In this document: one piece after another, positions 12,691 to 31,004 of the stretch | Layout: every line of letters begins with the position of its first letter | Numbering within the stretch: position 1 is the stretch's first letter | NCBI GenBank assembly: GCA_012271065.1 | Contig: JAAXHE010000351.1 | Span: 19,164 to 54,642 of the forward strand | Origin: Candidatus Latescibacterota bacterium | Lineage (GTDB): Bacteria; Latescibacterota; UBA2968; GCA-2709665 | DNA: 35,479 nt | Direction of reading: 5' to 3' | Made by a program: the position numbers and the translations under genes | The notes under the pieces: model-generated | What the model was told of the DNA's origin: nothing | What the model saw: the letters and a program-made list of their open reading frames with translations, nothing else | Databases searched by the model: none

Positions 12691-15183
12691 TCAGGGCGCC
12701 CGCCGGCTCAACTCCTCGCAGGCCCGCCGAAACAGCGCGATCAGTCGCGCACGCGCATTCTCGTCACGGAACACGCCGATGTTCTCCGCCCATGCGATGC
12801 CGCCTTCCATATGGGTCAACAGATATTCTCCGTCGGCGGGTTCGAACGCGCATCGATTCCCCACGTCGATGTAGACCGGCGACGAATGGGCCATCACCGG
12901 GCCGGCGTCCGTTGCGAATTCGCCCCAGCAACGGGCCGCCACCCAGCAGGACTTTTCAACGCTCAGTTCCTGCTGCAGCGTCACCGTCCTGCCGTCTCCG
13001 GCCGCCAGCTGTCTGGCGGCCCGTTCCCCGTTCACGATCAATTCCACAGCGGTCAACGGCCACACGCTCTCCGCGGTGGCGACCACGTCCAGCGTCCCGC
13101 CGTTCCCCGGCAGCGCGATCTCGCCGCCCATCGGCGTTCCCTCGACGCGCAGATCGATCATCGCCCCGGTACTGGCGAATGTCGTGCCATTTTTTACAGC
13201 TTTACACCAATTATCAAATGTAAACTCCTCTCCACGTGTAAGTTTAGCATAGGTCCGCGAACCCCCAAGAATGCGTTCGTTCGACATCTTGTCCGTCCCG
13301 CCGACGATGGGAAGCTTCTGACCCGTGTTCAGCCACCGGTAGTACCCGCGCTCTCCGGCGCCGATCTGTTCGCCCTTCCAGATCCAGCACATCTCCGCGG
13401 CATCGGCCTGGCCCAGCACGATATTTGCTGCATTCTCGAAATCGGGCGTGGGCATATGCGGCATAATCACCAGTCCCCCCTGCTCCCGGCAGGCTTCCGC
13501 CCAATCCGCCATCAGGACCTGGACCTCGCCTCCGATCCAATCCTCCTGCGGCCCACCGGTACACATTGGCGCCACCATTTCCTTCAGACCCAGCAGGCTG
13601 ATGTGCCCCAACACGTGCTGCCGGTTTTCCTGGCTCACCCAGATCTTGTGAAATTCGCTGCTGGTTGGCGCGAGGCCGCCCGTAAACTCCTCCCAGCTGG
13701 TAAACAGCCGGCCCCACTGGCTGGCGAGCAGGTTCACGACGTTCAGGTCTTCACCCGCCGCCTCGAGATGGGCCGATTGAGACGACAGAAAATGCACGTG
13801 CGTGTCCCCGGAGTAGAACCCCCGGTCTTTCATGTCGAATGCCCGCTCAACCTCCAGCGTCAGATTCCGCTGTCCGGGCTTCACTTCGACAAGCTTCCGT
13901 AACGGGACATACTCGAACCCTCGCGCCACTTCCACGTAGACCGGCCCCACCGGCAGTTCGACCTGACAGGTACCTTCAATATAGGCGTACGGCGTCCCGT
14001 GTACCTTGCAGTCGCCGCCCGTGTCCTCGAACCAGGCCGTATTCACGTCTGCCTGATGGCCGTGCGGCGCGAAATAGGCGCCGTGGGGAGACCGGAAATG
14101 TATCCTGCATCCCACCGGCCGGCCGGCGGCGGCGTCATTCACCCTGACATGCACCCACTGCCTGCCCGCGGGCGCGATCAGGGCCACGCGCGTTGCGCCG
14201 CGCTGCACCGTCTTCTCTTTCAAAACGTCTCCCCATCGGAACGCCTCGCTGGCGTCTCCGCACCGGATGTTCAGCCGCCCTTCCCGCGAGCCATGGACTT
14301 CCAGATAGCGCCCCTCCTGAAACACCTGTCCGCCTGAACCCCATCCCGCGTTTTCCGACTCGATGAAATCCGCACCGGGCACATAGAGCCGGTCCTGCCG
14401 CGCGATCACGCCTCGATCCATGTCGACCGCAATCTCCTCCCGGCTTCCGGTCGAAACCGCAACCTCGCTGCGCGGATGCCACACGAGCGGGTCGCTCTCC
14501 TCGTGGCAGAGCGTGATTCCGCCCAGGGCGACCGCGGCCCCGGCCGACGCCGATACCTCAATTTTCGTGATGGACGCTTCGGGATGCGGATTGACCCAGT
14601 CGTACAGCCACCAACCCGTCAAATCGCTGCTTTCCGACCGGACGCCCACCTGTGCCGCGCCGTACGGAACGGACCGGTCGTCCAACCCCACCGGGAGAAA
14701 CTCGCGGCAATTCCGGCAGAGAAAGGGATGGTGCCCCCACGGCACAAACAGGTCGTGAATCTGGAAACGCCGTCTCAACGTCTGCGCGACGTCGATTCCT
14801 GTGTCGTATCGGAGCCGGTATTGTCCGACGACTTCCCCGGTGCCTTCAAGACTCGTTTCAGCGCAGCTGACCGGCGTACAGACGTGCGCGAACAACACCC
14901 GGCGCGCCTTCCGGCCTACCTCAATGGACACGGAACCTGCGCCCTCCTTGCCCGCGTGCCCCGAAACCACGATAAACGAAGGTCCGCCGGATCTCTTGTC
15001 ACGTTCCGCAAGCGCGAAGGGAATCCCCCAGAACCGGCAGTTTCCCCCCGGGAGCCGGTTCAGCCCGCTCAATGCAGGCGTTCCCGGCGCGGCCGGCCAG
15101 AGGTAACCGCCCGTTGTCTCGACATTTTCGGGTCCGCAATTCAGATAGACGTTCAGATCCAGCGGTTCAAATACGTCCGACAT
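12691..15183 (-). CDS. CehA/McbA-like metallohydrolase, large two-part protein (copy 1)
   Basis: An 830-residue protein. The N-terminal half (about 1-430) is beta-rich and unrecognised. The C-terminal half is a PHP-like metallohydrolase domain with GDTHVHFLS near 460, EDLNVVNLLASQWG, ENRQHVLGHISLLG, IMPHMPTPDFENAAN and VGGTDKMSNERILGG near 629. The HxH, the later histidines and the GGTD aspartate are the expected metal ligands. CehA, the name-giving carbaryl hydrolase, cleaves a carbamate ester; this protein's own substrate is unknown. The start at 15183 is favoured by GGAG upstream and because the paralogue at 17789-20290 begins with the same E-P-L-N/D-L segment; an ATG at 15213 is possible. 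No clear signal peptide. The sugar-isomerase-like gene follows in the same transcript. Confidence 0.82.
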   Translation of the reverse strand: MSDVFEPLDLNVYLNCGPENVETTGGYLWPAAPGTPALSGLNRLPGGNCRFWGIPFALAERDKRSGGPSFIVVSGHAGKEGAGSVSIEVGRKARRVLFAHVCTPVSCAETSLEGTGEVVGQYRLRYDTGIDVAQTLRRRFQIHDLFVPWGHHPFLCRNCREFLPVGLDDRSVPYGAAQVGVRSESSDLTGWWLYDWVNPHPEASITKIEVSASAGAAVALGGITLCHEESDPLVWHPRSEVAVSTGSREEIAVDMDRGVIARQDRLYVPGADFIESENAGWGSGGQVFQEGRYLEVHGSREGRLNIRCGDASEAFRWGDVLKEKTVQRGATRVALIAPAGRQWVHVRVNDAAAGRPVGCRIHFRSPHGAYFAPHGHQADVNTAWFEDTGGDCKVHGTPYAYIEGTCQVELPVGPVYVEVARGFEYVPLRKLVEVKPGQRNLTLEVERAFDMKDRGFYSGDTHVHFLSSQSAHLEAAGEDLNVVNLLASQWGRLFTSWEEFTGGLAPTSSEFHKIWVSQENRQHVLGHISLLGLKEMVAPMCTGGPQEDWIGGEVQVLMADWAEACREQGGLVIMPHMPTPDFENAANIVLGQADAAEMCWIWKGEQIGAGERGYYRWLNTGQKLPIVGGTDKMSNERILGGSRTYAKLTRGEEFTFDNWCKAVKNGTTFASTGAMIDLRVEGTPMGGEIALPGNGGTLDVVATAESVWPLTAVELIVNGERAARQLAAGDGRTVTLQQELSVEKSCWVAARCWGEFATDAGPVMAHSSPVYIDVGNRCAFEPADGEYLLTHMEGGIAWAENIGVFRDENARARLIALFRRACEELSRRAP

Positions 15184-15346
15184 ACGCAATTCGCTCCAAT
15201 CTTGTGACATCATTCTGAAATCTATTGACGGTTGACGGCTTTCTCCGTACTCTCAATCGGCCGTCGAATCACGTACACGACGCATTTCGGCGTCCGACCG
15301 ACGGGGGAGCGGAGCCGGTCTGCCGCATAGTACAGGAGTAAAGGAT

Positions 15347-17788: not shown

Positions 17789-20290
17789 CTAGTGTGGAAC
17801 TCCGTGCCGGTGCAACCGGCGGTGGATGGCCTCTCTCGCCTCCAGAAACGGCCGTTCCAGGTACGCCATATGGTCCTCTTCCCCGTGGTGGTGGGTGACC
17901 TCTCCCGGCCTGTGCTGCCGGCTGTTGTGTTCCATGTACGAAATACAGCCGTCCACCAGCGTCAACATGTATGACGCGGTTTCGGAGTCGAACATCCACC
18001 ACTCGCCGCCGCAGGCGATGTAGACCGGGGAGGTATGCGCCATGATCCCGCGCCCCCAGCCGTCCAGGTGCGGGACCGCCTGGAAATAACCCGGCCCCCC
18101 GCAGCGCGCCGCCAGCCACGCGTGCGCGCCCACCTCGATATCCGCCTTCAGACGCAGCTTTCGCGCGCCCCCGGATTCCTCGGTTGAAGCGACGACCCGC
18201 CCGTTCTGTACGATCTGCAGCGTATGGATGGGCAGCACGCTTTCGGCCTCCGCGACGGCTTCGACCGTACCCCCGTTACCCGGTAGTCTGACGGTGTCGC
18301 CGATTTCGCGGCCGTCCACCGTGAACCGGATGATCGGACCCCCGCTGTGAAAGGTGCGGCCGGCGGCCATGTTTCTGCACCAGGCCTCGTACGTGAACGG
18401 CTCATCCTCGGGAATCCTCACATACGTCCGATAAATGCCCACCGGCACGTCGCTGCTCATCTTGTCGGTACCGCCTACAAGCGGCAGCCTGTACCCGCAG
18501 CCGAGATACCGATAGTACTCATGGTGATTGTACATCGTATGTCTGAGCATCTCAACCGCGTCGGCCCGCCCCGTTGCGATGAGTGCGGCGGGCTCGCCGT
18601 TGGGATTGGGCAGGTGCGGAATCACCACGGTCCCGCCCTGTGCGTGACATCGGTCCGCCCAATCCGACATCGTCACCTCGAGCGTTCCGCCCATCTCCGC
18701 TTCTCCCGGGCCGTCGGAACACCAGGGCATCACGGTCTCTTTCAGACCGAGCAGAATCAGATGCCCCAGAAAGTGCTGCCGGTTTTCGGATCCGACGTAG
18801 ACGATGCTGCTCCCGTCCGGCGACACGCTCGCCCTGCCGGTAAACTCCTCGGTATTGGTGAAGAGGTTGCCCCACTGCGAGGGCAGCAGGTTGACAACAT
18901 TGAGATCCTCTCCCTGGGCCTCGGTATGGCTTCCCTGCGTGGAGAGAAAATGGACATGCGAGTCCCCACTGAACCACCGCTCGTCATTCATGCGGCACCA
19001 GCGTTTCAGCCGCAGTTCCAGTTCCCGTTGCCCGGGCCTGATCTCCACCCCGGCGCGGAGCGGTTCGTACTCGAATCCCCGCGCAACGTCTACGATGACC
19101 TTGCCTCTGGGTAACCATCCCTGACACGTGCCATTCGTGTACGCGTACGTAATCTGACCCAGCCGGACGTCGCCGCCGACGTCGATATGCCACGTGTCCA
19201 GGTTGGAGTTCACATGCGGATGGTGTCCGTGCGGCGCGTAGGGTATCCCCTCGGGCGACCTGAAGTGTACCCTGCACGGTACGGGCTGTCCCGTCTCGTC
19301 GTCCACCACGCGCGTGTGGACCCAGTTACGGCCGCGGCTGACGACTTCGATCTTCATCGCCGGGGTCTCGATTCTGCCCCGTTTCTCCAGCTCTCCCCAT
19401 TGCACGGCGCCGAGGGTTTCGGAGCCGTGCGTCACCGTAACCGTTGCCGAAGGTATCGCGGCCACCTCGACATAGGCCGGGCTGCTGGACGGATTCTGCG
19501 GTTCTCCCCAGCCCTTCCTGCTGTCCTTCAGAAAATCATCCGACGACCGCGCCGGCAGCGGAAAGGGGTACGTGGCAATGCCTCGATCCACCTTCACGTC
19601 CAGGTCGAACGGTTTTTCAGCGTCCTCCCGCACCGGCAGCGTAATCAACACTTCACGCGGCGCCTCCCGCGAGAACGGATGCTCGTCGGCGTGGCCCAGC
19701 GTAATACCACCGATGACGAACCGGGGACCCGCGGGGATGACCTCGATCCGCTCAACCGCGCGGTCCGGGTGAGGGTTCTCCCAGACCCAGAGCGTAAAGT
19801 CCCGCGATCGTCCCTGGAACGCCTCGGTCTGCCGGCGTCCGGCGTCACCCCACCGTCCTTCGTGACGCGGAAGCATTCCGTCGGTCCGGTCCTGGACCGC
19901 CAAGAACGGAAGCCCTGCCGTCGCCGGAACGGTGCCGATCTCGAAACGGTCCCTGACAGCCGCCGAAACCACGGCGCCTCCATCCAGATGGAAGCGATAT
20001 TCCGCCACACGCTCGCCGACCGGCCCGTTGACCGGAATCCCCGAGTCGAGCAGCCGGTGCGCCACGATCACCCGCAGCGCCTTCTTTTCAACCGGGATGA
20101 AAGCAGGCTGACCCTCAATTCCCTCGCCGAAACCCAGCAGACAGGGCGCTGCTGTCGCGTCGGCGCGACCAATCAGAAACGGCAGCCCCTGGCAGTACCG
20201 GGCACCCGCAGAGACACTCGATCCCTCGCCCAGGTACTCCGGTCCCACGTTGCACATATCGGACAGATTCAGCGGTTCGTACGCATCCAT
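17789..20290 (-). CDS. CehA/McbA-like metallohydrolase, large two-part protein (copy 2)
   Basis: An 833-residue paralogue of the protein at 12691-15183, alike from end to end (40-50% identical by eye in the C-terminal half). The N-terminal half is a beta-rich region with segments such as WVHTRVVDDETGQPVPCRVHF that match copy 1. The PHP-like domain has GDSHVHFLSTQGSHTEAQGE near 444, ENRQHFLGHLILLGLKE, VIPHLPNPNG and VGGTDKMSSD near 607. The metal-binding positions match copy 1. It is the last gene of the six-gene minus-strand run, 34 bases after the D-2-hydroxyacid dehydrogenase. CehA itself hydrolyses a carbamate ester; the substrate here is unknown. No clear export signal. Confidence 0.82.
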   Translation of the reverse strand: MDAYEPLNLSDMCNVGPEYLGEGSSVSAGARYCQGLPFLIGRADATAAPCLLGFGEGIEGQPAFIPVEKKALRVIVAHRLLDSGIPVNGPVGERVAEYRFHLDGGAVVSAAVRDRFEIGTVPATAGLPFLAVQDRTDGMLPRHEGRWGDAGRRQTEAFQGRSRDFTLWVWENPHPDRAVERIEVIPAGPRFVIGGITLGHADEHPFSREAPREVLITLPVREDAEKPFDLDVKVDRGIATYPFPLPARSSDDFLKDSRKGWGEPQNPSSSPAYVEVAAIPSATVTVTHGSETLGAVQWGELEKRGRIETPAMKIEVVSRGRNWVHTRVVDDETGQPVPCRVHFRSPEGIPYAPHGHHPHVNSNLDTWHIDVGGDVRLGQITYAYTNGTCQGWLPRGKVIVDVARGFEYEPLRAGVEIRPGQRELELRLKRWCRMNDERWFSGDSHVHFLSTQGSHTEAQGEDLNVVNLLPSQWGNLFTNTEEFTGRASVSPDGSSIVYVGSENRQHFLGHLILLGLKETVMPWCSDGPGEAEMGGTLEVTMSDWADRCHAQGGTVVIPHLPNPNGEPAALIATGRADAVEMLRHTMYNHHEYYRYLGCGYRLPLVGGTDKMSSDVPVGIYRTYVRIPEDEPFTYEAWCRNMAAGRTFHSGGPIIRFTVDGREIGDTVRLPGNGGTVEAVAEAESVLPIHTLQIVQNGRVVASTEESGGARKLRLKADIEVGAHAWLAARCGGPGYFQAVPHLDGWGRGIMAHTSPVYIACGGEWWMFDSETASYMLTLVDGCISYMEHNSRQHRPGEVTHHHGEEDHMAYLERPFLEAREAIHRRLHRHGVPH

Positions 20291-29101: not shown

Positions 29102-30121
29102 CTACAAAAGCATCTTCTGATACTGGTCGATATTTTCAAGAACACGCCCGGTACCGCGGACAACACAGGTGAGCGGGTCGTCCGCCACGATTACGGGCAA
29201 ACCGGTTTCTTCCATCAGCCTGCGATCCAGTCCCCGCAGCAGCGCCCCGCCGCCCGTCATGATGATTCCCCTGTCCAGTATATCGGCAGCCAGTTCAGGC
29301 GGCGTCTGCTCCAGGGTCTGCCGCACCGCTTCCAGAATGGAAGTCACCGTACCGTTCAGCGCCTCCCGAATTTCCACCGAATCGACAACAATGGTTTTCG
29401 GGATAAAACTCACTGTATCCAGGCCGCGGCACGGATGCTGGAATTCACTGTCCAGCTTCCCGGCGGAACCGATTTCACACTTGATCTGTTCGGCGCTCCT
29501 CTCTCCGACCAGAAGGTTGTGTTTTCGTCTCAGCATCGTGATGATGGCCTGGTTCATCCCGTCGCCAGCTGTTTTGATTGACCTTGAGGTCACGATACCC
29601 GAAAGGGCAATCACCGCGATCTCGGTGGTTCCGCCTCCGATGTCGATGACCATCGACCCCATCGCCTCTTCGACGGGCAGCCCGATACCGATGGCTGCGG
29701 CCATCGGCTCCGTGATGATATACACCTCGCGGGCGCCCGCGCGCTCCGCGGACTCCCTGACGGCCCGCATCTCGACGGCAGTCACCCCGGAAGGCACGCA
29801 GATCACGATCCGAGGACGCACGAGAAGCCTGTTTTTCTGAACCTTTCGGATGAAATGCCGAAGCATCTCTTCCGTCACGTCGAAATCGGCAATAACCCCG
29901 TTACGCAGAGGACGTATAACCTCGATGTCGGGGTTCTGGCGCCCCATCATCTGCTTGGCGTGAGAACCAATGGCAAGTGGCTTGTGGGAATTGCGTTCCA
30001 GCGCGACCACTGAAGGCTCGTCTACCACAATATTCTGACCCTTGACATAAACCAGGGTATTTGCCGTACCCAGGTCGATACCTATGTCGTTGGACAGCAG
30101 TCTGGAAAGAAAAAGTGCCAT
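29102..30121 (-). CDS. mreB: Rod shape-determining protein MreB (bacterial actin)
   Basis: A 339-residue actin homologue that polymerises under the inner membrane and directs cell-wall elongation. Nucleotide-binding landmarks are present: phosphate-1 DIGIDLGTANTLVYVKG near residue 12, VIDIGGGTTEIAV (phosphate-2), EPMAAAIGIGLPVEE, and the adenosine-site IIMTGGGALLRGLD. The N-terminal MALFLSRLLSN could serve as the amphipathic membrane anchor. Length matches the family (about 335-350). It lies 21 bases after the purC relic, so it is likely transcribed from the purN promoter unless an internal one exists; GGGG lies about 11 bases before the ATG. Confidence 0.97.
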   Translation of the reverse strand: MALFLSRLLSNDIGIDLGTANTLVYVKGQNIVVDEPSVVALERNSHKPLAIGSHAKQMMGRQNPDIEVIRPLRNGVIADFDVTEEMLRHFIRKVQKNRLLVRPRIVICVPSGVTAVEMRAVRESAERAGAREVYIITEPMAAAIGIGLPVEEAMGSMVIDIGGGTTEIAVIALSGIVTSRSIKTAGDGMNQAIITMLRRKHNLLVGERSAEQIKCEIGSAGKLDSEFQHPCRGLDTVSFIPKTIVVDSVEIREALNGTVTSILEAVRQTLEQTPPELAADILDRGIIMTGGGALLRGLDRRLMEETGLPVIVADDPLTCVVRGTGRVLENIDQYQKMLL

Positions 30122-30142
30122 AGCGGTTCGATCCCCAGCGGG

Positions 30143-30325
30143 TTAGCCGAGCAACCGATCTCGAACGTCTCGATATTTGTCCAGGGTCTTCTCTGCAATC
30201 TCGTCCGGCAGCTCCGGCGCCGGCGGAGGCTTGTCCCAATCCAGGGTTTCCAGATAGTCACGGACCTTACACCTTGCGAACAGAGGCACGCCGATTAACC
30301 GTGTCTCCGTCAACGCCGTGGCCAT
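30143..30325 (-). pseudogene. purC: purC relic: PurC N- and C-termini joined by an in-frame internal deletion
   Basis: A 60-codon reading frame with GAGGAGG 10 bases before its ATG. Residues 1-23 (LTETRLIGVPLFARCKVRD) match the start of SAICAR synthase, normally ...L-T-E-T-x-L...RGKVRD. Residues 21-60 (VRDYLETLDWDKPPPAPEL, EIAEKTLDKYRD, RLLG) match its end, where long-form PurC proteins read like F-V-R-D-Y-L-E...W-D-K-x-P-P-x-P-x-L-P...Y. The two parts overlap exactly at VRD. The simplest reading is that about 230 codons were lost by recombination between the two VRD-coding sites, leaving the start, stop and frame intact. The ATP-binding and substrate-binding core is gone, so it cannot make SAICAR. 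It sits between purN and mreB; a functional purC should be elsewhere. An assembly error is the main alternative. Confidence 0.8.
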
Positions 30326-30341
30326 GGACGTATTTCCTCCT

Positions 30342-31004
30342 CTAGTTCAATATACGAACCTTCCGGCCATCGACCCTGATTCTTCCCTCCGCGAACAATC
30401 GGATCGCTTCAGCATACAACTCGTGCTCCACGGCCAGTACCCTGCCTGCCAGGGAACCGGGCGTGTCTTCGGGCGAGACGCGGACCCTGCGCTGCAGGAT
30501 GATCGGACCGGTGTCGTATTCCTCCTCCACGAGATGCACCGTCGCTCCGGAAACCTGTGCGCCGCTCCGGACGACGGCTTTGTGGACGCGCTGTCCGTAC
30601 ATGCCCTTGCCGCCGAATGCCGGAAGGAGCGCGGGGTGTATATTGACGATGCGGTTTCTGTACATCTCGAGAGTCACGGGACCGAGCTTCTTCATATAAC
30701 CCGCAAGAACCACCAGATCGACGCCGTGGGAACCGAGCGTTTCAGCGACCGCGCGGTCAAGGGAGCCTGGTCGCGGATGCGTCCTTCCGCTGAGGTGTAT
30801 CGCCGGAACGCACGCACGCCTGGCACGGGCAAGTGCGCCGGATCGGCTATTGTTGCCGATTACGACGCCCACGCGCGCCGGGAGACGTCCCGAAGCGCAC
30901 CGGTCGAGTATCGCCTGCAGGTTGGTCCCGCCTCCCGAGGCCAGCACGCCCAGGCAATAAACGGCATTCCTTCCAGACTGGTTCGCTCTTCCACATTGCG
31001 ACAC
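30342..31004 (-). CDS. purN: Phosphoribosylglycinamide formyltransferase (GAR transformylase 1)
   Basis: A protein of about 220 residues that transfers a formyl group from 10-formyl-tetrahydrofolate to GAR, the third step of purine synthesis. The phosphate-binding ASGGGTNLQAIL is at 22-33. The catalytic Asn121 and His123 lie in NIHPALLPAFGGKGMYG, and Asp164 in EEEYDTGPIIL. The N-terminus is uncertain: the frame opens with a GTG at 31004 that lacks a good ribosome-binding site, and the conserved domain starts near residue 16. It is the first gene of the minus-strand unit purN, purC relic, mreB, mreC. A divergent promoter region separates it from galU. Confidence 0.95.
   Translation of the reverse strand: MSQCGRANQSGRNAVYCLGVLASGGGTNLQAILDRCASGRLPARVGVVIGNNSRSGALARARRACVPAIHLSGRTHPRPGSLDRAVAETLGSHGVDLVVLAGYMKKLGPVTLEMYRNRIVNIHPALLPAFGGKGMYGQRVHKAVVRSGAQVSGATVHLVEEEYDTGPIILQRRVRVSPEDTPGSLAGRVLAVEHELYAEAIRLFAEGRIRVDGRKVRILN

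What the first reader, a model, noticed from the sequence alone, without database searches (positions are those of the whole stretch)
30143..30325. A 60-codon purC with its whole core deleted in frame between purN and mreB
Seen directly: the frame starts like PurC (LTETRLIGVPLF..CKVRD) and ends like PurC (VRDYLETLDWDKPPPAPEL..EKTLDKYRD), with a single shared VRD at the junction, a strong GAGGAGG site and an intact stop. Family knowledge: long-form SAICAR synthases have RGKVRD near the N-terminus and (F)VRDYLE near the C-terminus, so these repeats are a natural site for microhomology deletion. Inference: about 230 codons were lost, perhaps preserved in frame because mreB translation or mRNA stability depends on this segment. 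It may be a fixed relic, a translated micropeptide, or an assembly artefact.
Basis: partly seen in the sequence, partly recalled or inferred. Interest (0 to 1): 0.75.

Follow-up and report, generated by a model that had tools for sequence, protein, structure and literature searches.

The report
Relic of a displaced purC gene
A bacterial purine-synthesis gene has shrunk to its two ends, one stage in a decay series visible across sister species, three of which carry a different version of the enzyme elsewhere, so it is an ordinary but unusually well documented gene fossil.

Summary
The 60-codon frame holds residues 1-20 and the last 37 residues of a long-form PurC around one shared VRD; 232 codons are missing relative to three intact relatives with purC in the same slot. 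It is not an assembly artefact: G001 has the same junction, and a protein search gave ten other 60-61-residue clusters. Best reading: a decaying pseudogene. The other three held genomes of the genus lost purC here differently: 48-codon, 111-codon and near-total remnants. Three of the four held genomes (G001-G003) carry a distant PurC elsewhere, inside a tract 90-99% identical between species on contigs otherwise mostly 82-91% identical, so it spread horizontally. Between window and G001 the frame's nonsynonymous rate is not below the neighbours' synonymous rate. Two points stay open: G004 has neither an intact native nor the distant PurC in its assembly, and the frame stays open while its sequence drifts, which looks unlikely by chance, but the search sees only predicted ORFs. 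Dependence of mreB on this segment is not supported across the genus.

The parts
30342..31004 (-). purN, upstream neighbour
   Evidence: ORF; single strong match beside mreB in G001-G004
30336..30341 (-). AGGAGG, inherited purC ribosome-binding site, directly after the purN stop
   Evidence: sequence; also present in G001, G003 and, as AGGAGG, G004; lost in G002
30143..30325 (-). 60-codon purC relic ORF with TAA stop
30266..30325 (-). N-terminal purC segment, codons 1-20
   Evidence: alignment to intact purC of G005, G006, G020
30257..30265 (-). shared VRD codons GTCCGTGAC, the deletion junction
30143..30256 (-). C-terminal purC segment, codons 24-60 and stop
   Evidence: NCBIfam PRK13961 249-292; alignment
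30122..30142 (-). 21-bp gap between relic stop and mreB start
29102..30121 (-). mreB, downstream neighbour
   Evidence: ORF; strong match in 18 of 18 genomes searched

Best explanation
It is a decaying pseudogene of the native purC (SAICAR synthase) that once stood full-length between purN and mreB. A deletion of 232 codons between the two places that encode VRD removed the whole core; because both repeats are in the same codon phase the frame survived. RBS, start and stop were inherited, so a 60-residue peptide may still be made, but it cannot be a SAICAR synthase (shown: the core is absent; inferred: inactive). The native gene was expendable because a distantly related PurC of about 350-364 aa spread horizontally through the lineage (presence shown for G001, G002, G003; its enzyme activity, and its presence in the window's own genome, are inferred). 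Each species then lost the native copy by its own deletions.
For: Intact purC of 292-294 codons sits in this slot in G005, G006 and G020. In genus g1 the slot holds different remnants: 60 codons (window, G001), 48 codons made by two other deletions (G003), 111 codons with the C-terminus out of frame (G004), about 13 terminal codons only (G002). The window, G003 and G004 keep different parts, so their common ancestor had the full gene. The distant PurC is the only complete one found in G001, G002, G003, G016 and G021 and was not found in G005, G006 or G020, whose hits with it are their native purC. Its dS among G001-G003 is 0.06-0.13, against 0.34-0.43 for mreB and 0.42-0.58 for purN. Its contigs in G001, G002 and G003 are collinear and mostly 82-91% identical over the stretch before it, like the purN-mreB yardstick of 85-91%, then mostly 94-99% (some pieces 90-93%) over the part that holds it. 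It is 92% identical between G001 and G016 where MreB is 79%, and 76-79% identical to proteins named from Gammaproteobacteria, Verrucomicrobiae and Pirellulaceae. In the relic, nonsynonymous changes between window and G001 are 18.5 of 136 sites, against 45 of 435 synonymous sites in purN plus mreB (Fisher p 0.35) and 11 of 483.5 nonsynonymous sites in purN (p 2e-6). Three of four replacement statistics in ten clusters fit neutral drift, P 0.19-0.35. The slot has taken repeat-like insertions in G003 and G004.
Against: G004 has a broken native purC but no distant PurC and no segment around it was found, though it has purH: an assembly gap or a real loss, unexplained. The window's own genome is not held, so the replacement is not shown there. 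All 11 clusters of the 60-codon type and both of the 48-codon type are open frames; simulated drift gives 0.007-0.009 for no stop or start loss over about 100 substitutions, before allowing for the fact that only predicted ORFs can be found. One of four replacement statistics leans to conservative change (P 0.04-0.07). Within-frame dN/dS is 0.59, below 1 but not significantly (p 0.15-0.34). Four of five scorable deletions kept the frame (p 0.045; deletions judged by eye).
Confidence: 0.85

Rival explanations
1. A pseudogene kept for its translation: the peptide sequence is free to drift, but the open frame, its strong RBS and its stop close to mreB are held by selection because ribosome traffic between purN and mreB (coupling, or protection of the message) matters in this clade.
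For: All 11 clusters found have the same 60-61 codon frame; a second type, 48 codons, is open in two clusters at 81% identity; simulated chance of no stop or start loss 0.007-0.009; relic stop 21 bp from mreB in window and G001; 4 of 5 scorable deletions in frame, p 0.045.
Against: Only predicted ORFs could be sampled, so broken copies were invisible. G002 has lost RBS and start; in G003 and G004 the relic ORF ends 215 and 205 bp from mreB. In-phase repeats explain in-frame deletion without selection.
Confidence: 0.1
2. A functional microprotein made from the two ends of PurC.
For: Open frame with RBS in 11 clusters; one conservation statistic borderline, P 0.04-0.07.
Against: Nonsynonymous rate not below neighbouring synonymous rate (p 0.35) and far above that of purN (p 2e-6); other replacement statistics fit drift; structure model poor, mean pLDDT 65.1, pTM 0.25, from an 11-sequence alignment; different or no remnant in the three other held genomes of the genus.
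Confidence: 0.03
3. Assembly artefact or collapsed repeat in the window.
For: The window comes from an assembly that could not be checked against reads.
Against: Same junction in G001 in an ungapped 1201-bp alignment with 28 differences inside the frame, so not a copy of the same assembly, and in ten other protein clusters.
Confidence: 0.01

Closest known systems
Bacterial pseudogene left after horizontal displacement of the native gene (xenologous gene displacement)
   Same: Native gene broken in its ancestral slot, distant homologue elsewhere, unconstrained change in the remnant.
   Different: Several independent stages of decay of one gene are visible in one genus, and the window's remnant stays in frame. 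G004 lacks the replacement in its assembly.
Long-form SAICAR synthase PurC (NCBIfam PRK13961 and TIGR00081, Pfam PF01259)
   Same: Both termini and the place between purN and mreB.
   Different: Whole core absent; no Pfam match; far below the NCBIfam cut-off.
Partial purQ copy in M. marisnigri, suspected duplication or HGT followed by gene decay (PMC3261824, passages seen)
   Same: A shortened purine-pathway gene read as decay beside a full-length copy elsewhere.
   Different: Other gene and organism; no series of sister genomes in the passages seen.

Membership tests
SAICAR synthase (PurC) | Pfam PF01259 match over its cut-off | tested here: not met
   0 families for the 60-aa protein
SAICAR synthase (PurC) | NCBIfam equivalog score over cut-off | tested here: not met
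   41.7 bits against 251, only positions 249-292 of 297
SAICAR synthase (PurC) | Central core, including the DTKFEFG and SPDSSRFW stretches of intact relatives | tested here: not met
   absent from the translation, present in G005, G006, G020; that these stretches belong to the active site is recalled
Pseudogene of the native purC | Intact orthologue in the same slot in relatives | tested here: met
   G005, G006, G020
Pseudogene of the native purC | Relaxed constraint | tested here: met
   nonsynonymous rate not below neighbouring synonymous rate (p 0.35) and above purN nonsynonymous rate (p 2e-6); one pair of genomes only
Xenologous displacement | Replacement enzyme encoded elsewhere in the same genome | tested here: inconclusive
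   present in 3 of 4 held genomes of the genus, not found in G004; window's genome not held
Xenologous displacement | Replacement acquired horizontally | tested here: met
   dS 0.06-0.13 against 0.34-0.58; high-identity tract on collinear species-typical contigs; 76-79% identity to proteins named from other phyla
Selected translated spacer or microprotein | Frame kept open more often than drift allows | tested here: inconclusive
   simulation 0.007-0.009, but only predicted ORFs could be sampled
Selected translated spacer or microprotein | Evidence of translation and a phenotype | not testable with these tools
   needs ribosome profiling or proteomics and genetics

The most novel reading that the evidence does not exclude
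A dead gene kept as a translated spacer: selection holds the reading frame, ribosome-binding site and length while the peptide sequence drifts freely, because ribosome traffic between purN and the cell-shape gene mreB matters in this clade.
Probability: 0.1. Interest if true: 0.6.

Novelty: new member of a known kind. Interest (0 to 1): 0.32.

Why it matters
It gives a natural series of how a core-pathway gene disappears after a foreign version has spread: intact gene, several independent partial deletions and near-clean removal, all in one slot next to mreB. It also shows that gene callers list such remnants as 60-residue proteins. If the frame proved to be selected, it would be a clear case of a pseudogene kept for its translation rather than its product.

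Tried and rejected
Rejected: assembly artefact. Rejected: an RNA element as the reason for retention; the interval folds no better than shuffles (z 0.22, 111 of 200 shuffles at least as stable) and has no promoter-like or terminator-like site by simple consensus. Rejected: that the distant PurC lies on foreign contigs mis-binned into G001-G003. The genus-wide 193-bp repeat on those contigs does not by itself exclude a congener, so I compared the contigs: C19, C48 and C54 are collinear and mostly 82-91% identical before the tract, as the species' purN-mreB regions are. Composition could not decide: the regions with the distant PurC differ from the core loci.

A DNA pattern scan of viral contigs found nothing. 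Papers: searches gave listings with starts of abstracts only (no papers); passages of PMC3261824 were seen, and a term search of PMC12993501 found none of purC, purine, pseudogene, mreB. No listed title or abstract start described a purC relic between purN and mreB; only the held open-licence library was searched.

Not achieved: an ORF-blind DNA sample of the 60-codon clade.

Full report
What is there. The frame lies on the minus strand, window 30325 to 30143, in the order purN, relic, mreB. It reads MATALTETRLIGVPLFARCK-VRD-YLETLDWDKPPPAPELPDEIAEKTLDKYRDVRDRLLG. NCBIfam PRK13961 (PurC) matches residues 16-59 at model positions 249-292 of 297 with E 8.2e-11, but with 41.7 bits against a cut-off of 251; Pfam finds nothing. 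AGGAGG follows the purN stop directly and the relic stop is 21 bp before mreB.

Origin of the frame. The window's own assembly is not held; the nearest genome held is G001. G005, G006 and G020 have an intact purC of 292-294 codons in the same slot, and in each the VRD near the N-terminus and the VRD near the C-terminus are 232 codons apart. The two sites share 9 of 9 bases in G006, 8 of 9 in G020 and 6 of 9 in G005 (by eye). The ancestor's own repeat cannot be known. A deletion between these in-phase repeats gives the window's frame.

Not an artefact. G001 aligns with the window over 1201 bp without a gap, 94% identical, and has the same 60 codons. Its contig matches a record titled Gemmatimonadota bacterium isolate RHO1_bin_28 by length and 60-mers; the other three genomes of the genus match records titled Gemmatimonadota (two) and Candidatus Latescibacterota (one). 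A protein search with the relic returned 40 proteins, 11 of them (the query's own cluster included) of 60-61 aa with the same junction. I read the sequences of the first 12; the other 28 are known from the listing only.

A decay series. Distance from the end of the purN match to mreB: window and G001 about 220 bp, 60-codon frame; G003 381 bp, a 48-codon frame made by two other deletions, followed by a repeat insertion; G004 563 bp, a 111-codon frame whose first deletion is in frame and second is not, followed by another insertion; G002 69 bp, about 13 terminal codons, no RBS or start. These four are all the genus members held: the family search covered six genomes. The window keeps parts lost in G003 and the reverse, so their ancestor had the full gene and it was lost more than once. 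G016, in another family of the order, has about 180 bp with what look by eye like both purC ends, frame broken; G021 and G017 have 65 and 51 bp.

The replacement. Of 60 relatives searched with PF01259, 56 matched. G001, G002 and G003 carry one complete PurC, a distant form of 364 aa (open frame) on other contigs. G016 and G021 likewise show only this form, and G044 has it beside another. It scores 127.5 bits to PRK12607, below that model's cut-off of 371, and matches solved PurC structures over part of its length (best E 4.2e-11), so its activity is inferred. Among G001-G003 its dS is 0.06-0.13, against 0.34-0.43 for mreB and 0.42-0.58 for purN. The contigs that hold it (C19, C48, C54) are collinear; from the start of C19 to about 80 kb most pieces are 82-91% identical, with a patch of 93-96% near 17-22 kb and a few lower, probably paralogous, pieces, while from about 88 kb to the end of C19 most are 94-99%, some 90-93% (pieces of at least 500 bp; C54 was compared from 1-20 kb and 100-260 kb only). 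The yardstick at purN-mreB is 85-91%. This excludes foreign mis-binned contigs and shows exchange between species. G001 and G016 share the protein at 92% where MreB is 79%. A protein search listed 120 of 1216 hits; besides Latescibacteria, names from Gammaproteobacteria, Verrucomicrobiae, Akkermansiaceae and Pirellulaceae appear at 76-79%. Of the order's 21 held genomes, five have only the distant form (G001, G002, G003, G016, G021), three the native form in this slot (G005, G006, G020), twelve a third score class (185-228 bits) whose surroundings I did not examine, and G004 only a fragment.

Against this reading. G004 has neither an intact native purC nor the distant PurC nor its segment, although it has purH and is rated 97% complete. 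An assembly gap is possible but not shown. The replacement is not shown for the window's genome.

Selection. Between window and G001 the relic has 18.5 nonsynonymous changes in 136 sites and 9.5 synonymous in 44 (dN 0.150, dS 0.255); purN has dS 0.136 and dN 0.023, mreB dS 0.095 and dN 0. Nonsynonymous change in the relic is not lower than synonymous change in the neighbours (p 0.35) and far above purN's nonsynonymous rate (p 2e-6); dN below dS inside the relic is not significant (p 0.15-0.34; half counts rounded). Simulated drift on the protein tree of ten clusters, P0011 left out for its different end, reproduces three of four statistics (P 0.19-0.35 under three settings); the fourth is borderline (0.04-0.07). 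The chance of no stop or start loss in that simulation is 0.007-0.009, but the clusters were found because they are open frames. The 48-codon type is open in two clusters at 81% identity. Four of five scorable deletions kept the frame (p 0.045); G002 and G016 were left out because start or frame could not be scored. Drift explains the sequence; the persistence of the frame is not settled.

No other cause found. RNA folding is like shuffles, there is no promoter or terminator pattern, and the peptide model is poor (mean pLDDT 65.1, pTM 0.25).

Verdict. A purC pseudogene, one of several independent remnants in the genus, after horizontal spread of a distant PurC. Ordinary in kind, well documented in its steps.

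Noticed in passing
One copy is the insertion between purC relic and mreB in G003. No copy in the window with this query.
   Followed up: partly
G001:C19 about 88-116 kb, G002:C48, G003:C54 about 216-242 kb: A rearranged tract of 90-99% identity shared by three species whose flanking sequence is mostly 82-91% identical; it carries the distant PurC. A recently exchanged island.
   Followed up: partly
L113:1079-1223 (G004:C2); near L166:3-149 and L165:15-56: The insertion between relic and mreB in G004 resembles sequence upstream of purH in G003 (80% over 147 bp) and part of it in G002 (98% over 42 bp): perhaps a second repeat family.
   Followed up: partly
G004 (whole genome): No intact PurC of any type found although purH is present: purine auxotroph or assembly gap.
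   Followed up: partly
G016:C45:271971-272735: Three neighbouring purH (PF01808) pieces in separate open frames, beside a longer purH match on another contig: perhaps a second decaying purine gene.
   Followed up: no
P0011: A 61-aa relic whose N-terminal half is like this genus and whose C-terminal end differs (EKYLEAEHRLTGR): recombinant or chimeric contig.
   Followed up: no
G006:C66:37520-37639: A weak second PF01259 match (31.5 bits) beside an intact purC elsewhere in that genome.
   Followed up: no
window 12691-15213 and 17789-20290, minus strand: Two long ORFs (840 and 833 aa) that look alike by eye, probably paralogues.
   Followed up: no
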